In this document: positions 19,084-24,768 of the stretch, piece after piece | Layout of the letters: every line of letters begins with the position of its first letter | Position numbering within the stretch: the first letter of the stretch is position 1 | Assembly: GCF_003633755.1 (NCBI RefSeq) | Contig: NZ_RBIL01000001.1 | Span: forward strand, 1,721,426 to 1,785,425 | Direction: 5' to 3' | From: Solirubrobacter pauli | Lineage (GTDB): Bacteria > Actinomycetota > Thermoleophilia > Solirubrobacterales > Solirubrobacteraceae | Length of the DNA: 64,000 nt | Notes under the pieces: model-generated | What the model was told of the DNA's origin: nothing | What the model saw: only the letters and a program-made list of their open reading frames with translations | The model's database searches: none | Translations under genes and position numbers: made by a program

Positions 19084-20378
19084 ACGCCGTATCGCTGCGC
19101 GCCGCCTTCGCCGCGCGGGAGCTGTCGCCGGTCGAGGTCGTGGACGCCTTCGAGGAGCTGCCGGAGTACGGCGCCTTCATCACGCTCACGCTCGAGCGCG
19201 CGCGGGAGGAGGCCAAGGCCGCGGAAGCCGCGTACCGGGACGGCACGGCGCGGCCGCTGGAGGGGCTGACGCTCGCCGTCAAGGACCTGTTCGACACCGA
19301 GGGCGTGCGGACCACGTACGGCTCGAGCATCTTCACCGGGCACGTGCCCAACGCCGACGCGTGGGCCGTGCGGCGGGCGCGGGAGGCCGGCGCGATCGTG
19401 GTCGGCAAGACGATCACGCACGAGTTCGCGTGGGGCATCACGTCGATCAACCCGCACTTCCCGCCGTGCCGCAACCCGCACGACCCCGAGCGCGTACCGG
19501 GCGGGTCCAGCGGCGGGTCGGGCGTGGCGCTCGGCCTCGGGCAGGCCGCGCTCGCGCTGGGCACGGACACCGGCGGCTCGATCCGCATCCCGGCGTCGTT
19601 CTGCGGCGTCTCGGGCCTGAAGCCGACGTTCGGCCGGATCAGCACGGGCGGCGTCTTCCCGCTCGCCCGCTCGCTCGACCACGCCGGGCCGATGGCACGC
19701 ACGCCCGGCGACGTGAAGCTCTTCTACGAGGCGCTCGTCGGCGAGCGCGGGCGCACCGAGCCGGCCACGCGCATCGCGGTCTGCCCGGACCTGCACCTGC
19801 GTGCGCCCGAGCCGGGCATCCAGCGCGCGTTCGACACGGCCGTCGCCGCGCTGGACGCCGAGGTGGTCGAGGTGCGCTTCGACGCCAACCCGGAGCGCCT
19901 GTACCCAACGTACGCGAGCATCCAGAACGCCGAGGCGGCGCTCACCCACGCGCCGTTCTTCCCCGCGCAGCGCGACGCGTACGGCCCCGACGTCGCCGGC
20001 CGGATCGAGTTCGCGCAGCGCGTGACGCTCGCCGAGTACGCGGAGGCGATCGCCGAGCGCGAGCGCATCCGCAGCGCCTTCTCGCACCTGTTCGCGATCG
20101 CCGACCTGCTGATCACGCCGATCTCGGCCGTCCCGCCGGAGCGGATCGACGCGCCGACCAACCAGCAGTTCCGCGACGGCGTCCTGCCCTACACGGTGCC
20201 GCAGGACCTCGCCGGGCTGCCGGCGTGCGCGGTGCCCGTCGGCTTCGACGACGAGGGCCTGCCCGTCGGCGTGCAGCTCACCGGCGCGCCCTGGTGCGAG
20301 GCCCTCGTGCTCGCCACCGCCGAGGCGCTGTTCAGCGCGACAGCATCGGCGAGGGCGGAATCCGCGTCTGCCCGGTGA
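19077..20378 (+). CDS. Amidase-signature family hydrolase
   Basis: A 433-residue amidase from GTG 19077. The Ser-cisSer-Lys triad is complete: Lys in LTLAVKDLFDTEG, cis-Ser in PGGSSGGSGVALG and the nucleophile Ser in GTDTGGSIRIPASFCGVSGLKPTFG. It hydrolyses a C-N amide bond. The start lies in the stop of the alpha/beta hydrolase, so the two are translationally coupled and may serve one degradation route (epoxide or nitrile to amide to acid is possible). Its 3' end overlaps the convergent UBP zinc-finger gene by 47 bp. Confidence 0.9.
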   Translation: MLNAVSLRAAFAARELSPVEVVDAFEELPEYGAFITLTLERAREEAKAAEAAYRDGTARPLEGLTLAVKDLFDTEGVRTTYGSSIFTGHVPNADAWAVRRAREAGAIVVGKTITHEFAWGITSINPHFPPCRNPHDPERVPGGSSGGSGVALGLGQAALALGTDTGGSIRIPASFCGVSGLKPTFGRISTGGVFPLARSLDHAGPMARTPGDVKLFYEALVGERGRTEPATRIAVCPDLHLRAPEPGIQRAFDTAVAALDAEVVEVRFDANPERLYPTYASIQNAEAALTHAPFFPAQRDAYGPDVAGRIEFAQRVTLAEYAEAIAERERIRSAFSHLFAIADLLITPISAVPPERIDAPTNQQFRDGVLPYTVPQDLAGLPACAVPVGFDDEGLPVGVQLTGAPWCEALVLATAEALFSATASARAESASAR

Positions 20379-20655
20379 TCTGCGGGATCAGCATCCCGAC
20401 CTCGTCCTTGAAGCACCAGCACCACGCCTCACCCGGCTCGAGCGAGCGGATGATCGGGTGCTCGTCGTGAGCGCGCGCGTGCGCGCTCGCGTGCTGGTTC
20501 GGTGAGTCGTCGCAGCAGCCGACGTGCCCGCACGTCAGGCAGATGCGCAGGTGCAGCCAGACGTCACCGGTCTTCAGGCAGTCCTCGCAGCCGGCCACCT
20601 CGTCCGGCAGCTCGGTGATCTCGATCGCGTCGGTGTGGGTGCAGCGCGTGCTCAT
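20332..20655 (-). CDS. UBP-type zinc finger protein
   Basis: A 107-residue protein that is nearly all one UBP-type (ubiquitin-hydrolase-like) zinc finger: C5, H7, C23-x2-C26, C39-x2-C42, C47, and the His residues H55, H59, H63 and H66 within GCCDDSPNQHASAHARAHDEHPI. WCWCFKDE follows. In eukaryotes this fold binds the C-terminus of ubiquitin; the bacterial role is unknown. It starts by ATGA overlap with the histidine kinase gene, the third gene of the operon at 23719-20332. Confidence 0.88.
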   Translation of the reverse strand: MSTRCTHTDAIEITELPDEVAGCEDCLKTGDVWLHLRICLTCGHVGCCDDSPNQHASAHARAHDEHPIIRSLEPGEAWCWCFKDEVGMLIPQITGQTRIPPSPMLSR

Positions 20656-22064
20656 TGCTTCTTCCCCTCGAGTGGCAGCCAGATGTGGAAGGTCGTGCCC
20701 GCGTCGCTCGTGTCGAACGTCAGCGAGCCGCCGTGCTTCTGCTCCACGATCCGGCGGGCGGTGTCCAAGCCCATGCCCGTGCCGCTGCCGGGGGCCTTCG
20801 TGGTGAAGAACGGATCGAAGATGCGCGCGCGGACGTCCTCGGGGATGCCCGGGCCGGTGTCGGCGATGTCGACCCGGATGCAGCCGTTGTCGGGCAACGT
20901 CGTGATCGTGATCTTCCCGTCCTCGCCGAGCGCGCCGAGCGCGTTGTCGAGGATGTTCGTCCACACCTGGTTGAGCTCGGACCCGTGCATCGTGATCTTC
21001 GGCAGCGACTGGTCGTAGTTGCGCTCGACCTTGATGTTCGTGTGCTTGATCTTGTGCTTGAGCATGATCAGCGTGCTGTCGAGGCCCTCGTGCACGTCGG
21101 CGATGATCACGCCGCCGCGGTCCATGTAGGCGTAGGTCTTGATCGCCTTCACGAGCTGCGACATGCGGTCGGTGGAGTCCACGAGCTCGGTGGCCAGCTC
21201 TTGCGCGGAGATCGTCGACGCCACCCACCACAGCGCTTTCAGCGAGGCGTGCGTGCCCTCGCCGGTGATGGCGATGACGCGTCGGACCCAGTCCTCGTCG
21301 AGCCCGGCCGCGGCGAGCGGCTCCGAGAAGCGGTACCCCTCCGTGATGCCGAGGTCGGCGAGCAGGTCCTCCATCGCGTCGATCGCGTCGGCTTCGTCGA
21401 GCGCGCCGCCCGCCTCGCGAAGCTCGCAGCGCTCGAGCGCCTCCTTCTGCAGCGCGAGCAGCTTCTCGGCGTCGTCGAGCTCGATGCCGGCCTCCACGAA
21501 CGCGCGCAGCGCGTAGTTGATGACCTGCATCGCCTGCACGAGGTCCGACGCCGCGCGCCGCGCCGCCGCGGCCGGGTTGTTGAGCTCGTGCGCGAGGCCC
21601 GCGGCCATCGTGCCGAGCGAGGTCAGCCGCTCCTGGCTGGACTCGCGCGCGTTGAGGCCGCGCATCACCGGCCCGATCACGTGCATGACCTTGCGGTGCA
21701 CGGAGCGGTGCTTGATCGCCAGGTCGATGAAGGCGTCGCGCGGCACGATCGCGTACCGGCACGTCGACGTCGTCTCGATCGTGACCGGGAGCGGCCCCTC
21801 GGTGATGGCCGCGATCGCGCCGATCCAGGTCGGCCCGTGCCCCGGGTTGCCGATGTCGGTGCCGCCGCCGGCCGTCTTGACCAGGCCGCGCGTGGCGCCG
21901 TCGAGCAGCAGCAGCGTGCCGGGCGAGTCCTGGCCCTGCTCGAGCAGGATCTCGCCCTCCCCGACCTCCTGGATCGAGGGTGTCGCGGCCGCCCACTCCG
22001 CCAGCGCCTCGTCCGACAGCCCGTCGAACAGGTCGATCCGGCGGAGCTCTTCGACGGGGATCAT
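20652..22064 (-). CDS. Histidine kinase with cyclic-nucleotide-binding sensor domain
   Basis: A 470-residue soluble kinase. Residues 1-125 form a cNMP/CRP-type beta-roll (EGEILLEQGQDSPGTLLLLDG), then a dimerisation helix with the phospho-accepting H159 (GLAHELNNPAAAARR) and the ATPase domain: N box QVWTNILDNALGALG, G1 IADTGPGIPEDV, G2 GSGTGMGLDTARRIV. No membrane helix. It overlaps the receiver-flavoprotein gene by ATGA and is its likely phosphodonor. Confidence 0.9.
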   Translation of the reverse strand: MIPVEELRRIDLFDGLSDEALAEWAAATPSIQEVGEGEILLEQGQDSPGTLLLLDGATRGLVKTAGGGTDIGNPGHGPTWIGAIAAITEGPLPVTIETTSTCRYAIVPRDAFIDLAIKHRSVHRKVMHVIGPVMRGLNARESSQERLTSLGTMAAGLAHELNNPAAAARRAASDLVQAMQVINYALRAFVEAGIELDDAEKLLALQKEALERCELREAGGALDEADAIDAMEDLLADLGITEGYRFSEPLAAAGLDEDWVRRVIAITGEGTHASLKALWWVASTISAQELATELVDSTDRMSQLVKAIKTYAYMDRGGVIIADVHEGLDSTLIMLKHKIKHTNIKVERNYDQSLPKITMHGSELNQVWTNILDNALGALGEDGKITITTLPDNGCIRVDIADTGPGIPEDVRARIFDPFFTTKAPGSGTGMGLDTARRIVEQKHGGSLTFDTSDAGTTFHIWLPLEGKKQ

Positions 22065-23719
22065 TCGGCCAGGTACTCGTGGATCAGCGAGACGGCCATC
22101 GAGCCCTCGCCCACCGCGCTCGCGACGCGCTTGATCGAGCGGGCGCGGACGTCCCCGGCGACGAACACGCCGGGCACGGTCGTCTCGAGCGTGTAGGGGT
22201 CGCGTTTGAGCGGGAAGCCCGCGGCCTTGGCGTCGGCGCCGGCGAGGATGAAGCCGCGCTCGTCACGCCCCACGACCCCGTCGAGCCAGTCGGTGCGCGG
22301 CGCGGCCCCGATGAACACGAACGTCGCGTCGACGTCCTCCTCGTGCTCGCCGTCGGCGTCGCGGATGCGCAGCGTGCGCAGGTGGTCATCGCCCCCGGCC
22401 GCGATCGCCTGCGCGCCCGTGCGCACGTCGATGTTCGGGATGGCGGCGATCTGCTCGATCAGGTAGTGCGACATCGACTTCGCGAGCGAGTCGCCGCGCA
22501 CGAGCATCGTCACCTGACGCGCGTAGCCCGAGAAGTGCACGGCAGCCTGGCCCGCGGAGTTCGCGCCGCCGATGATCACGACGTGCTGCTCCGAGCACGA
22601 GCGCGCCTCGCTCAGCGCTGCGCCGTAGTAGATGCCCTTGCCGGTGAACGTGTCGAAGCCCTCGGCGGTGAGGTGGTTGTAGGAGACGCCGGACGCCACG
22701 AGCACGCAGTTCGCGCTCAGCGTGCCGCCGCCCGACAGCTGCAGGATCCGGCCGGCGCCCTCGACCCGCAGCGACACCGCGTCCTGGACCGTCAGCAGCT
22801 CGGCGCCGAGCCGGCGCGCCTGGTCGGTCGCGCGGCGCGCCAGGTCCGAGCCCGACAGGCCGGTCGGGAAGCCGAGGTAGTTCTCGATCCGCGACGACGT
22901 GCCCGCCTGGCCGCCGGGCGCCTCGCGCTCGACCATCACGGTCCGCAGGCCCTCCGACGCGCCGTAGACCGCGGCCGCGAGCCCCGCGGGCCCGCCGCCG
23001 ACGATCGCCAGGTCGTAGTGGTCGGACGCGGGCGCGGCGGACACGCCGAGGCGCTCGGCCAGCTCCAGCACGGTCGGGCGCTCGAGCACGGTGCCGTCCT
23101 CGAGCAGCGCGACCGGCAGCCGGCCGTCCTCGACCGCCGCGACCGCGAGCAGCTCACGCGCCTCGGAGTCGCGCTCGACGTCCAGCCAGCGCATCGGCAC
23201 GCGGTTGCGGGCGAGGAAGTCGCGCAGGTCGTGCGAGTCGCGGCTGAAGCGGTGGCCGATCACGCGCACGCCGCCGGACTCGAGCGCGGCGCCCGCCTCC
23301 CACGTCGTCAGCAGGTCCTCGACGACCGGGTACAGCTGCTCCTCCGGCGGGTCCCACGGCTTGAGCAGGTAGTAGTCGAGGTCGACCTCGTTGATCGCCT
23401 GGATCGCCGCCTCGGTGTCGGCGTACGCGGTCAGGAGCACGCGCTTGGCGTCCGGCACGAGCTTGCGCGCCTCCACCAGGTACTCCGTGCCGGCCATGCC
23501 CGGCATCCGCTGGTCGGCGACGAGCAGCGCGACCTGCTCGCCGCGCGCGACGAGCTCCTTCAGCGCGCCCAGCGCCTCGGGCCCGCTGGTCGCACGTACG
23601 ATCCGGTAGCGCTCGCCGAACTGACGCCGCAGGTCACGGGCGACGGCGGCGAGCACGGCGGGTTCGTCATCGACGCAGACGATCGCGGCGCGGCGCCGGC
23701 GCGGTTCGGAAGCCTCCAT
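22061..23719 (-). CDS. Receiver domain fused to thioredoxin-reductase-like flavoprotein
   Basis: A 552-residue fusion. Residues 1-140 are a response-regulator receiver (DDEP, D69 in VADQRMPG, T97, K120). About 150-225 is a thioredoxin-like region without Cys pair (VRVIGHRFSRDSHDLRDFLARN). From 236 a thioredoxin-reductase-type domain: GGGPAGLAAAVYGASEG for FAD, HVVIIGGANSAGQAAVHF for NAD(P)H, GVFVAGDVRARSIKRVASAVGEG. The CxxC that TrxR needs is missing: the position reads GKGIYYGAALSEARSC. It may move electrons to another acceptor under control of phosphorylation. First gene of the coupled trio. Confidence 0.92.
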   Translation of the reverse strand: MEASEPRRRRAAIVCVDDEPAVLAAVARDLRRQFGERYRIVRATSGPEALGALKELVARGEQVALLVADQRMPGMAGTEYLVEARKLVPDAKRVLLTAYADTEAAIQAINEVDLDYYLLKPWDPPEEQLYPVVEDLLTTWEAGAALESGGVRVIGHRFSRDSHDLRDFLARNRVPMRWLDVERDSEARELLAVAAVEDGRLPVALLEDGTVLERPTVLELAERLGVSAAPASDHYDLAIVGGGPAGLAAAVYGASEGLRTVMVEREAPGGQAGTSSRIENYLGFPTGLSGSDLARRATDQARRLGAELLTVQDAVSLRVEGAGRILQLSGGGTLSANCVLVASGVSYNHLTAEGFDTFTGKGIYYGAALSEARSCSEQHVVIIGGANSAGQAAVHFSGYARQVTMLVRGDSLAKSMSHYLIEQIAAIPNIDVRTGAQAIAAGGDDHLRTLRIRDADGEHEEDVDATFVFIGAAPRTDWLDGVVGRDERGFILAGADAKAAGFPLKRDPYTLETTVPGVFVAGDVRARSIKRVASAVGEGSMAVSLIHEYLAE

Positions 23720-23729
23720 GCCCAGGACG

Positions 23730-24740
23730 CTATACGACGCGAACCGGCGTGCCGACTTCCACGAAGTCGAACACCGCTTGGACTTCCGGCATAGGTACGC
23801 GCGCGCCGCCGTGCGAGGCGGGGCCGGCGGGCACGTCGGTCGCGCCGTAGAGGGCGAGGCCGGTCCCCCAGTAGACCGCGTGATCCAGCCAGCTCTTGAA
23901 CGGCACGGACCAGGCCTCCTCGACCTTGCGCGTGACCTTGAAGGTGCCGGAGGGCGTGCCCATGTCGGTCGAGTTGTTGCCGACGCCGGTCGACGTGTGG
24001 ATGACGCGAACGACGCGGCCCGCCTCGACCAGCAGCACGACGCTCTTGCCGCGGATGATCTCGACCTTCTTGCCCGCGCCCGTGCGGTCGGTGGCCAGCG
24101 GCCGGCCGGCGCCGTCGAGGCGCTGCAGCGTCATCCCGCCCACGATCCCGTCGCGCTCGAGGCCCTCCCAGGACTGGAAGGCGAGCACGGCCTGCTGGGA
24201 GCGGTAGTCCCACTTGCCGGTGACCGCGTCCTCGGGCAGGTAGCCGAGCTGCGCGAGCTTGGCCTGCACCGCCTGCGGGTCGCGCGGCGCGGCCGGCTTC
24301 TTCGTCGGCGGCTTGGGCGCGGTGTACTCCTCCGGCGGGGCGAAGTCCGCGCGCGTGAACGTGCGGCCGCGGATCTCGACCTCCTCGGCGTCGGACGCGC
24401 CGGTGACCGTGTAGACCACCTGCGCCACGCGCGCGAGGTAGGAGACGTCGGCGGCCGCGAAGCTGCCGCCGAGCTCGACTTCGACCTTGTCGTCGTCCTC
24501 CTCGGCGGACGTGACCGTCACGCCGCTCGGGATCGCAGTGCCGTAGCCCTTCTTGCGCTCGGCGGCCGTGACGCCCTGCAGCAGCACCTTCAGCGCGGCC
24601 TCGGGGCCGGCGGCGGCCTGGCGCTTGACCGAGCTGAGCGCCTCGCCGCGCAGGACGTAGATCTTGACCGTCTTGGCCTCGGCCGCCGCGGGCGCGGCGA
24701 GCACGAGCAGGGCGACGACGAGGAGAAGGAATCTGCGCAT
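23730..24740 (-). CDS. GerMN / PG-binding / L,D-transpeptidase-like protein without catalytic Cys
   Basis: A 336-residue secreted protein: signal peptide 1-21, GerMN domain about 25-130, linker, PG_binding_1 domain (about 154-207) and a YkuD-like fold (about 226-336). In YkuD enzymes the active site reads HG...SHGC; here it is LYGA (297-300) and SHGG (309-312), so the catalytic Cys is Gly312 and the first His is Tyr. It probably binds peptidoglycan without crosslinking it. A GTG one codon upstream is an alternative start. It sits 10 bp upstream of the receiver-flavoprotein start on the same strand. Confidence 0.85.
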   Translation of the reverse strand: MRRFLLLVVALLVLAAPAAAEAKTVKIYVLRGEALSSVKRQAAAGPEAALKVLLQGVTAAERKKGYGTAIPSGVTVTSAEEDDDKVEVELGGSFAAADVSYLARVAQVVYTVTGASDAEEVEIRGRTFTRADFAPPEEYTAPKPPTKKPAAPRDPQAVQAKLAQLGYLPEDAVTGKWDYRSQQAVLAFQSWEGLERDGIVGGMTLQRLDGAGRPLATDRTGAGKKVEIIRGKSVVLLVEAGRVVRVIHTSTGVGNNSTDMGTPSGTFKVTRKVEEAWSVPFKSWLDHAVYWGTGLALYGATDVPAGPASHGGARVPMPEVQAVFDFVEVGTPVRVV

Positions 24741-24768
24741 CACGCGGCCAGTTTGACAAGGTGCGCAA

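What the first reader, a model, noticed from the sequence alone, without database searches (positions are those of the whole stretch)
20332..23719. Coupled redox signalling operon: receiver-TrxR-like fusion, cNMP-domain histidine kinase, UBP zinc finger
Three genes with ATGA overlaps code for a receiver fused to a thioredoxin-reductase-like flavoprotein, a soluble kinase with a cyclic-nucleotide-type sensor domain, and a single UBP zinc finger, a fold mostly known from ubiquitin binding. The flavoprotein has lost the CxxC of TrxR (GKGIYYGAAL at the site). A phosphorelay whose output is a flavin enzyme instead of DNA binding would be unusual. I recall similar sets in other actinobacteria, so the set may be conserved but not explained.
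Basis: partly seen in the sequence, partly recalled or inferred. Interest (0 to 1): 0.62.

Follow-up and report, generated by a model that had tools for sequence, protein, structure and literature searches.

The report
Kinase-controlled flavoprotein with UBP zinc finger
Three overlapping bacterial genes appear to form a signalling set in which a sensor kinase switches a flavin enzyme by phosphorylation, with a small zinc protein as partner; the set is widespread and, from memory, was already predicted by computer in 2011, but its chemistry is unknown.

Summary
Three minus-strand genes with exact ATGA overlaps encode REC–Grx-fold–TrxR-like, CNB-fold–histidine kinase and a single UBP zinc finger.

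The set is widespread. In 198 genomes of the phylum the kinase occurs only with REC-flavoproteins that keep their phosphorylation site (23 of 24 genomes versus 0 of 174). The pair occurs in seven phyla; the complete trio was seen in three.

New here:
- The receiver site is intact in 102 of 103 proteins with a kinase in the locus (the other is truncated) and degraded in 22 others, none with a kinase nearby. Eight of eight genomes with an intact but unlinked receiver carry the kinase elsewhere. On the tree this is only about two independent events.
- None of 159 relatives keeps the CxxC, and the Grx-like domain also lacks one, so it is not a thioredoxin reductase.
- The "cyclic-nucleotide" domain lacks the cAMP-binding Glu and Arg.
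- The UBP domain keeps its zinc ligands but has Asp where ubiquitin binders have Arg.

Best reading: the kinase phosphorylates REC to gate a CxxC-less NAD(P)H flavoprotein, with UBP as its partner. Acceptor, signal and UBP role are unknown. From memory (paper not held), Burroughs, Iyer and Aravind 2011 predicted this kind: a new member of a known, untested kind.

The parts
22061..23719 (-). REC - Grx-fold - TrxR-like flavoprotein (552 aa, P0001)
23345..23683 (-). receiver domain, residues 13-125; D17, D18, D69, T97, K120 all present
23513..23515 (-). D69 codon, predicted phospho-acceptor
23042..23275 (-). glutaredoxin-fold domain without CxxC, residues about 149-226
   Evidence: (Glutaredoxin E 0.085)
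22064..23026 (-). TrxR-like FAD/NAD(P)H domain, residues 232-552
22610..22624 (-). former CxxC site, residues 366-370 (GAALS)
20652..22064 (-). CNB-fold histidine kinase (470 aa, P0002)
21717..22040 (-). CNB-fold sensor domain, residues 9-116, phosphate-binding Glu and Arg missing
21588..21590 (-). H159 codon, phospho-acceptor histidine in HELNNP H-box, invariant in 51 kinases
21252..21491 (-). helical insert in the DHp hairpin, residues about 192-271, between H120-191 and H272-316
20667..20978 (-). HATPase_c domain, residues 363-466
20332..20655 (-). stand-alone UBP zinc finger (107 aa, P0003)
22061..22064 (-). ATGA overlap, flavoprotein/kinase
20652..20655 (-). ATGA overlap, kinase/UBP

Best explanation
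A two-component system whose output is a flavoprotein instead of a DNA-binding domain. The soluble kinase (CNB-fold sensor, ligand unknown and probably not cAMP) autophosphorylates on H159 and passes the phosphate to D69 of the receiver fused to the flavoprotein. Phosphorylation is inferred to shift the receiver and Grx-fold domains so as to gate an FAD- and NAD(P)H-binding, TrxR-derived core, which hands electrons to an acceptor other than its own CxxC. The UBP zinc protein acts on the flavoprotein side as adaptor or substrate, not as a ubiquitin reader. Shown by comparison: gene linkage, kinase-receiver co-dependence, loss of both CxxC sites, loss of cAMP- and ubiquitin-contact residues. Inferred: phosphotransfer, gating, catalysis, and the role of UBP.
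For: Kinase genes occur only in genomes with an intact-REC flavoprotein (23/24 versus 0/174; the 24th has a contig-cut kinase). 70 of 80 named loci hold both, in both gene orders. REC active-site residues are intact in 102/103 with a kinase in the locus (one truncated) and degraded in 22, all without one. 8/8 genomes with intact but unlinked REC have a full-length kinase elsewhere, and 14/15 genomes with degraded REC have none. The same Grx-TrxR core carries an intact REC, a degraded REC, a CNB domain or no front domain, which makes the front a swappable input and the flavoprotein the output. Two or three tandem kinases sit beside one flavoprotein in several loci. UBP neighbours the core in 9/24 loci of types C and D that lack the kinase and co-occurs with the family in 31/40 versus 14/158 genomes. 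CxxC: 0/159 at the TrxR-like site and 0/159 in the Grx-like domain, while the genome's own TrxR keeps CATC.
Against: No biochemical data exist. Intact versus degraded REC is only about two independent events on the tree, too few for a significant phylogenetic test. UBP is absent from many loci (present in 27/80) and is fused to Na+/H+ exchangers elsewhere, so it has another context. An inactive, purely sensory flavoprotein is not excluded.
Confidence: 0.62

Rival explanations
1. The flow is reversed: the flavoprotein is the sensor (NAD(P)H or flavin redox state) and its fused receiver is a phosphate sink or modulator of the kinase, whose real output is another protein.
For: No CxxC means no obvious product; no other output gene recurs beside the set; the kinase can be unlinked.
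Against: The core is also found behind a CNB input domain or a degraded receiver without any kinase, so its role does not need one. No DNA-binding response regulator is a general neighbour of the set.
Confidence: 0.2
2. A conventional thiol system in disguise: the reduced flavin reduces disulfides of an external thioredoxin-like protein (for example the DsbA-like domain of a nearby NhaA fusion) by direct docking.
For: TrxR fold; a Grx-fold domain in front of the core, reminiscent of AhpF; NhaA-DsbA fusions with CPxC lie near 6/159 loci of six different families.
Against: Both internal CxxC sites are lost in all 159; the NhaA link is post hoc and rare; the window has no such neighbour.
Confidence: 0.12
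3. A cyclic-nucleotide-dependent redox signalling system in the literal sense, with cAMP or cGMP bound by the kinase.
For: CNB fold; 6 of 109 kinases keep the Glu and Arg of the phosphate-binding cassette.
Against: In the window's kinase both are lost (Glu to Ala, the Arg site to Leu/Pro), as in most relatives.
Confidence: 0.06

Closest known systems
Bacterial ZF-UBP redox-signalling system (Burroughs, Iyer, Aravind 2011, Mol BioSyst 7:2261, doi 10.1039/c1mb05061c; abstract recalled from memory, text not held)
   Same: UBP finger encoded with a TrxR-like flavoprotein and a cyclic-nucleotide-type domain, unrelated to ubiquitin
   Different: Cannot be compared in detail. The tests here (receiver site tied to kinase presence, CxxC loss, loss of cAMP contacts) may or may not be in that paper.
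Cyclic nucleotide-binding domain-containing thioredoxin-disulfide reductase (RefSeq name, e.g. Deinococcus aquaticus)
   Same: Same Grx-TrxR core without CxxC (type C here)
   Different: CNB fused directly to the core in place of a receiver; no kinase
AhpF (PDB 4o5q, 1hyu)
   Same: Thioredoxin-fold domain in front of a TrxR domain
   Different: AhpF has active CxxC in both (established knowledge); none here; no receiver in AhpF
TrxR-type ferredoxin-NADP reductases (e.g. 6gar, 8c3m)
   Same: TrxR fold (Z 27.9); CxxC-free by established knowledge
   Different: Lower structural similarity than to TrxR; no Grx or REC domain; ferredoxin as acceptor untested here
2ida, Rhodopseudomonas palustris UBP-like protein (organism recalled, listed as hypothetical protein)
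   Same: Closest solved relative of P0003 (E 3.1e-27)
   Different: Function unknown

Membership tests
Two-component histidine kinase | H-box histidine, N-box, G-boxes, DHp-CA fold | tested here: met
   H159, N374, D402, G404, G428 and G430 invariant in 51 kinases; Foldseek to ZraS and HK853; extra helical insert in DHp
Response-regulator receiver | Acidic pair, phospho-Asp, Thr/Ser, Lys | tested here: met
   D17, D18, D69, T97, K120
Low-molecular-weight thioredoxin reductase | Redox-active CxxC in the NADPH domain | tested here: not met
   Gly and Ser at the two sites; 0/159 relatives keep it; 193 bits against the TIGR01292 cut-off of 343
Low-molecular-weight thioredoxin reductase | FAD and NAD(P)H Rossmann motifs, TrxR fold | tested here: met
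   (Z up to 35)
Glutaredoxin | CxxC or CxxS active site | tested here: not met
   SRDS at the site; no CxxC in 159
Cyclic-nucleotide-binding domain | Phosphate-binding-cassette Glu and Arg | tested here: not met
   Glu to Ala, Arg site Leu/Pro; 6/109 kinases keep both
Cyclic-nucleotide-binding domain | CNB fold | tested here: met
   Rv0998 CNB, Z 19.8, 2.2 A over 135 residues; Pfam score just under its cut-off
ZnF-UBP | Zinc ligand set | tested here: met
   C23, C26, C39, C42, C47, C48, H55, H59, H66 in 51/51
Ubiquitin-binding ZnF-UBP | Arg contacting the ubiquitin C-terminus (established for HDAC6 and USP5) | tested here: not met
   Aligned residue is D49, Asp or Glu in 51/51
ZF-UBP redox-signalling system (2011) | Gene linkage of UBP, TrxR-like flavoprotein and CNB protein | tested here: met
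   the definition itself is recalled, the paper was not readable
Phosphorelay to a flavoenzyme | Phosphotransfer and effect on turnover | not testable with these tools
   needs biochemistry

The most novel reading that the evidence does not exclude
A phosphorelay whose output is electron flow: a CxxC-less flavoprotein passes NAD(P)H electrons, with its Cys-free Grx-fold domain as a docking module, to the cysteine- and zinc-rich UBP protein, which would be a zinc/redox switch and the true effector, with no link to ubiquitin.
Probability: 0.12. Interest if true: 0.78.

Novelty: new member of a known kind. Interest (0 to 1): 0.45.

Why it matters
Most response regulators bind DNA or make second messengers. 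Here a kinase is tied to a flavoprotein in seven phyla, yet I found no experimental study of it in the library searched. The comparison gives concrete tests (H159, D69, acceptor, UBP partner) and removes two misleading labels, thioredoxin-disulfide reductase and cyclic-nucleotide or ubiquitin binder.

Tried and rejected
Literature: the 2011 paper is not held, and full-text searches found no experimental study of the set. Neighbour survey for the electron acceptor: apart from the trio mostly local synteny recurs (streptomycete DUF4032/MBL genes, acidobacterial genes); NhaA-DsbA fusions near 6/159 loci are kept as a lead only. The L,D-transpeptidase gene 10 bases upstream was considered as a fourth member and rejected, as it is not found near any relative fetched with a long flank. 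One in-frame kinase-UBP fusion (L065) was not used as strong evidence, because a sequencing error could make it. A sign test on the tree for REC loss versus kinase loss had too few events. Whole-model fold searches listed mainly the TrxR and kinase domains, so they say nothing about the DHp insert or the Grx-like domain.

Full report
The reading. The stated coordinates hold three minus-strand genes: 22061-23719 (552 aa), 20652-22064 (470 aa) and 20332-20655 (107 aa), with ATGA overlaps at 22061-22064 and 20652-20655. Pfam finds Response_reg plus Pyr_redox_2, cNMP_binding (25.5 bits against a cut-off of 27.5) plus HATPase_c, and zf-UBP at 54.3 bits. It is the only UBP finger found in the 7.1-Mb genome. 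The genome is of the Solirubrobacterales kind, judged from the nearest named hits: Conexibacter, an unnamed Solirubrobacterales bacterium and Patulibacter.

Anatomy. The AlphaFold model of the flavoprotein (mean pLDDT 88) shows a receiver, a long linker helix (125-148), a beta-alpha-beta-alpha-beta-beta-alpha domain of glutaredoxin type (151-224) and a TrxR core (Z 35.2, 1.7 A over 301 residues to 4up3). The kinase model (pLDDT 91.8) shows a CNB fold (Rv0998, Z 19.8), a 72-residue helix carrying H159, a helical insert at about 192-271, the second DHp helix (272-316) and the catalytic domain.

What is missing. At the site of CATC in the genome's own thioredoxin reductase (over the TIGR01292 cut-off) the flavoprotein has GAALS. 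None of 159 relatives has Cys at either position, and none has CxxC in the Grx-like domain. Cys375 is kept in 125 of 159. The FAD and NAD(P)H motifs are kept. So the protein is TrxR-derived but not a thioredoxin reductase. In the kinase's CNB domain the cAMP-contacting Glu and Arg (marked by CRP and PKA) are lost; only 6 of 109 related kinases keep both. In the UBP protein nine zinc-type ligands are present in 51/51, but the residue aligned with the Arg of USP16 is Asp or Glu in 51/51. That Arg is established in HDAC6 and USP5 as the contact to the ubiquitin C-terminus (own knowledge).

Spread. In 198 genomes of the phylum, UBP occurs in 45, the flavoprotein family in 40 and the kinase in 23. 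Every kinase genome has an intact-REC flavoprotein (23 of 24; the 24th, G238, has a kinase cut by a contig end). UBP co-occurs with the flavoprotein family in 31/40 against 14/158. In the 80 best named loci the kinase is present in 70 and UBP in 27, in Actinomycetota, Cyanobacteriota, Chloroflexota, Acidobacteriota and Bacteroidota, with different gene orders: flavoprotein-kinase-UBP in actinobacteria, kinase-flavoprotein-UBP in Dyadobacter and Mucilaginibacter. The complete trio was seen in Actinomycetota, Bacteroidota and one cyanobacterium. Flavoprotein beside an 'ATP-binding protein' of kinase size, without UBP, also occurs in Caballeronia and Deinococcus. RefSeq names the three genes in Streptomyces fungicidicus 'FAD-dependent oxidoreductase', 'ATP-binding protein' and 'UBP-type zinc finger'.

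Architectures. Four fronts precede the same Grx-TrxR core: intact REC with kinase (type A), degraded REC without kinase (B), CNB fused directly (C), and none (D). Several loci have two or three kinases beside one flavoprotein (L056, L059, L124, L127, L131, L140). UBP accompanies types A, C and D, so it goes with the flavoprotein core and not with the kinase.

Natural experiment. The five receiver residues are intact in 102 of 103 proteins with a kinase in the locus; the exception is truncated. They are degraded in 22, all without a kinase, and intact in 10 without a kinase in the locus. Eight of those ten genomes were searched, and all eight have a full-length kinase elsewhere; 14 of 15 genomes with only degraded receivers have none, and the 15th has a contig-edge fragment. 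This links kinase and receiver. The counts are not independent: the tree needs only three changes, one of them the truncated row.

Mechanism. The front-domain swap makes the flavoprotein the output. The best-supported reading is phosphorylation of D69 by the adjacent kinase, gating an NAD(P)H-flavin core or its docking. Phosphotransfer, gating and acceptor are inferred. UBP is placed on the flavoprotein side by its co-occurrence.

Known or new. From memory, the abstract of Burroughs, Iyer and Aravind 2011 states that bacterial ZF-UBP domains are part of a novel cyclic-nucleotide-dependent redox signalling system. The paper exists (reference list of PMC4506424) but could not be read. I therefore file the window's set as a new member of that predicted kind. 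The tests here argue against a literal cyclic-nucleotide signal for this member.

Noticed in passing
window 23730-24743 (-): Germane/PG_binding/YkuD (L,D-transpeptidase) gene ends 10 bases upstream of the trio on the same strand, so it may be co-transcribed; no match near any relative.
   Followed up: yes
window 21252-21491 (-): Helical insert of about 80 residues inside the DHp domain, conserved in kinases of five phyla.
   Followed up: partly
L196, L198, L212: UBP fingers fused to the C-terminus of Na+/H+ exchangers (PF00999).
   Followed up: partly
L037, L039, L071, L107, L114, L177: NhaA-DsbA fusion antiporters (a C-terminal fragment in L071) near the flavoprotein in six different families.
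   Followed up: partly
L065:4328-6085: Kinase and UBP in one open frame (586 aa); possible fusion or sequence error.
   Followed up: partly
L056, L059, L131: Three tandem CNB kinases beside one flavoprotein.
   Followed up: no
window 20332-20378: The UBP gene overlaps the 3' end of the convergent amidase gene by 47 bases.
   Followed up: no
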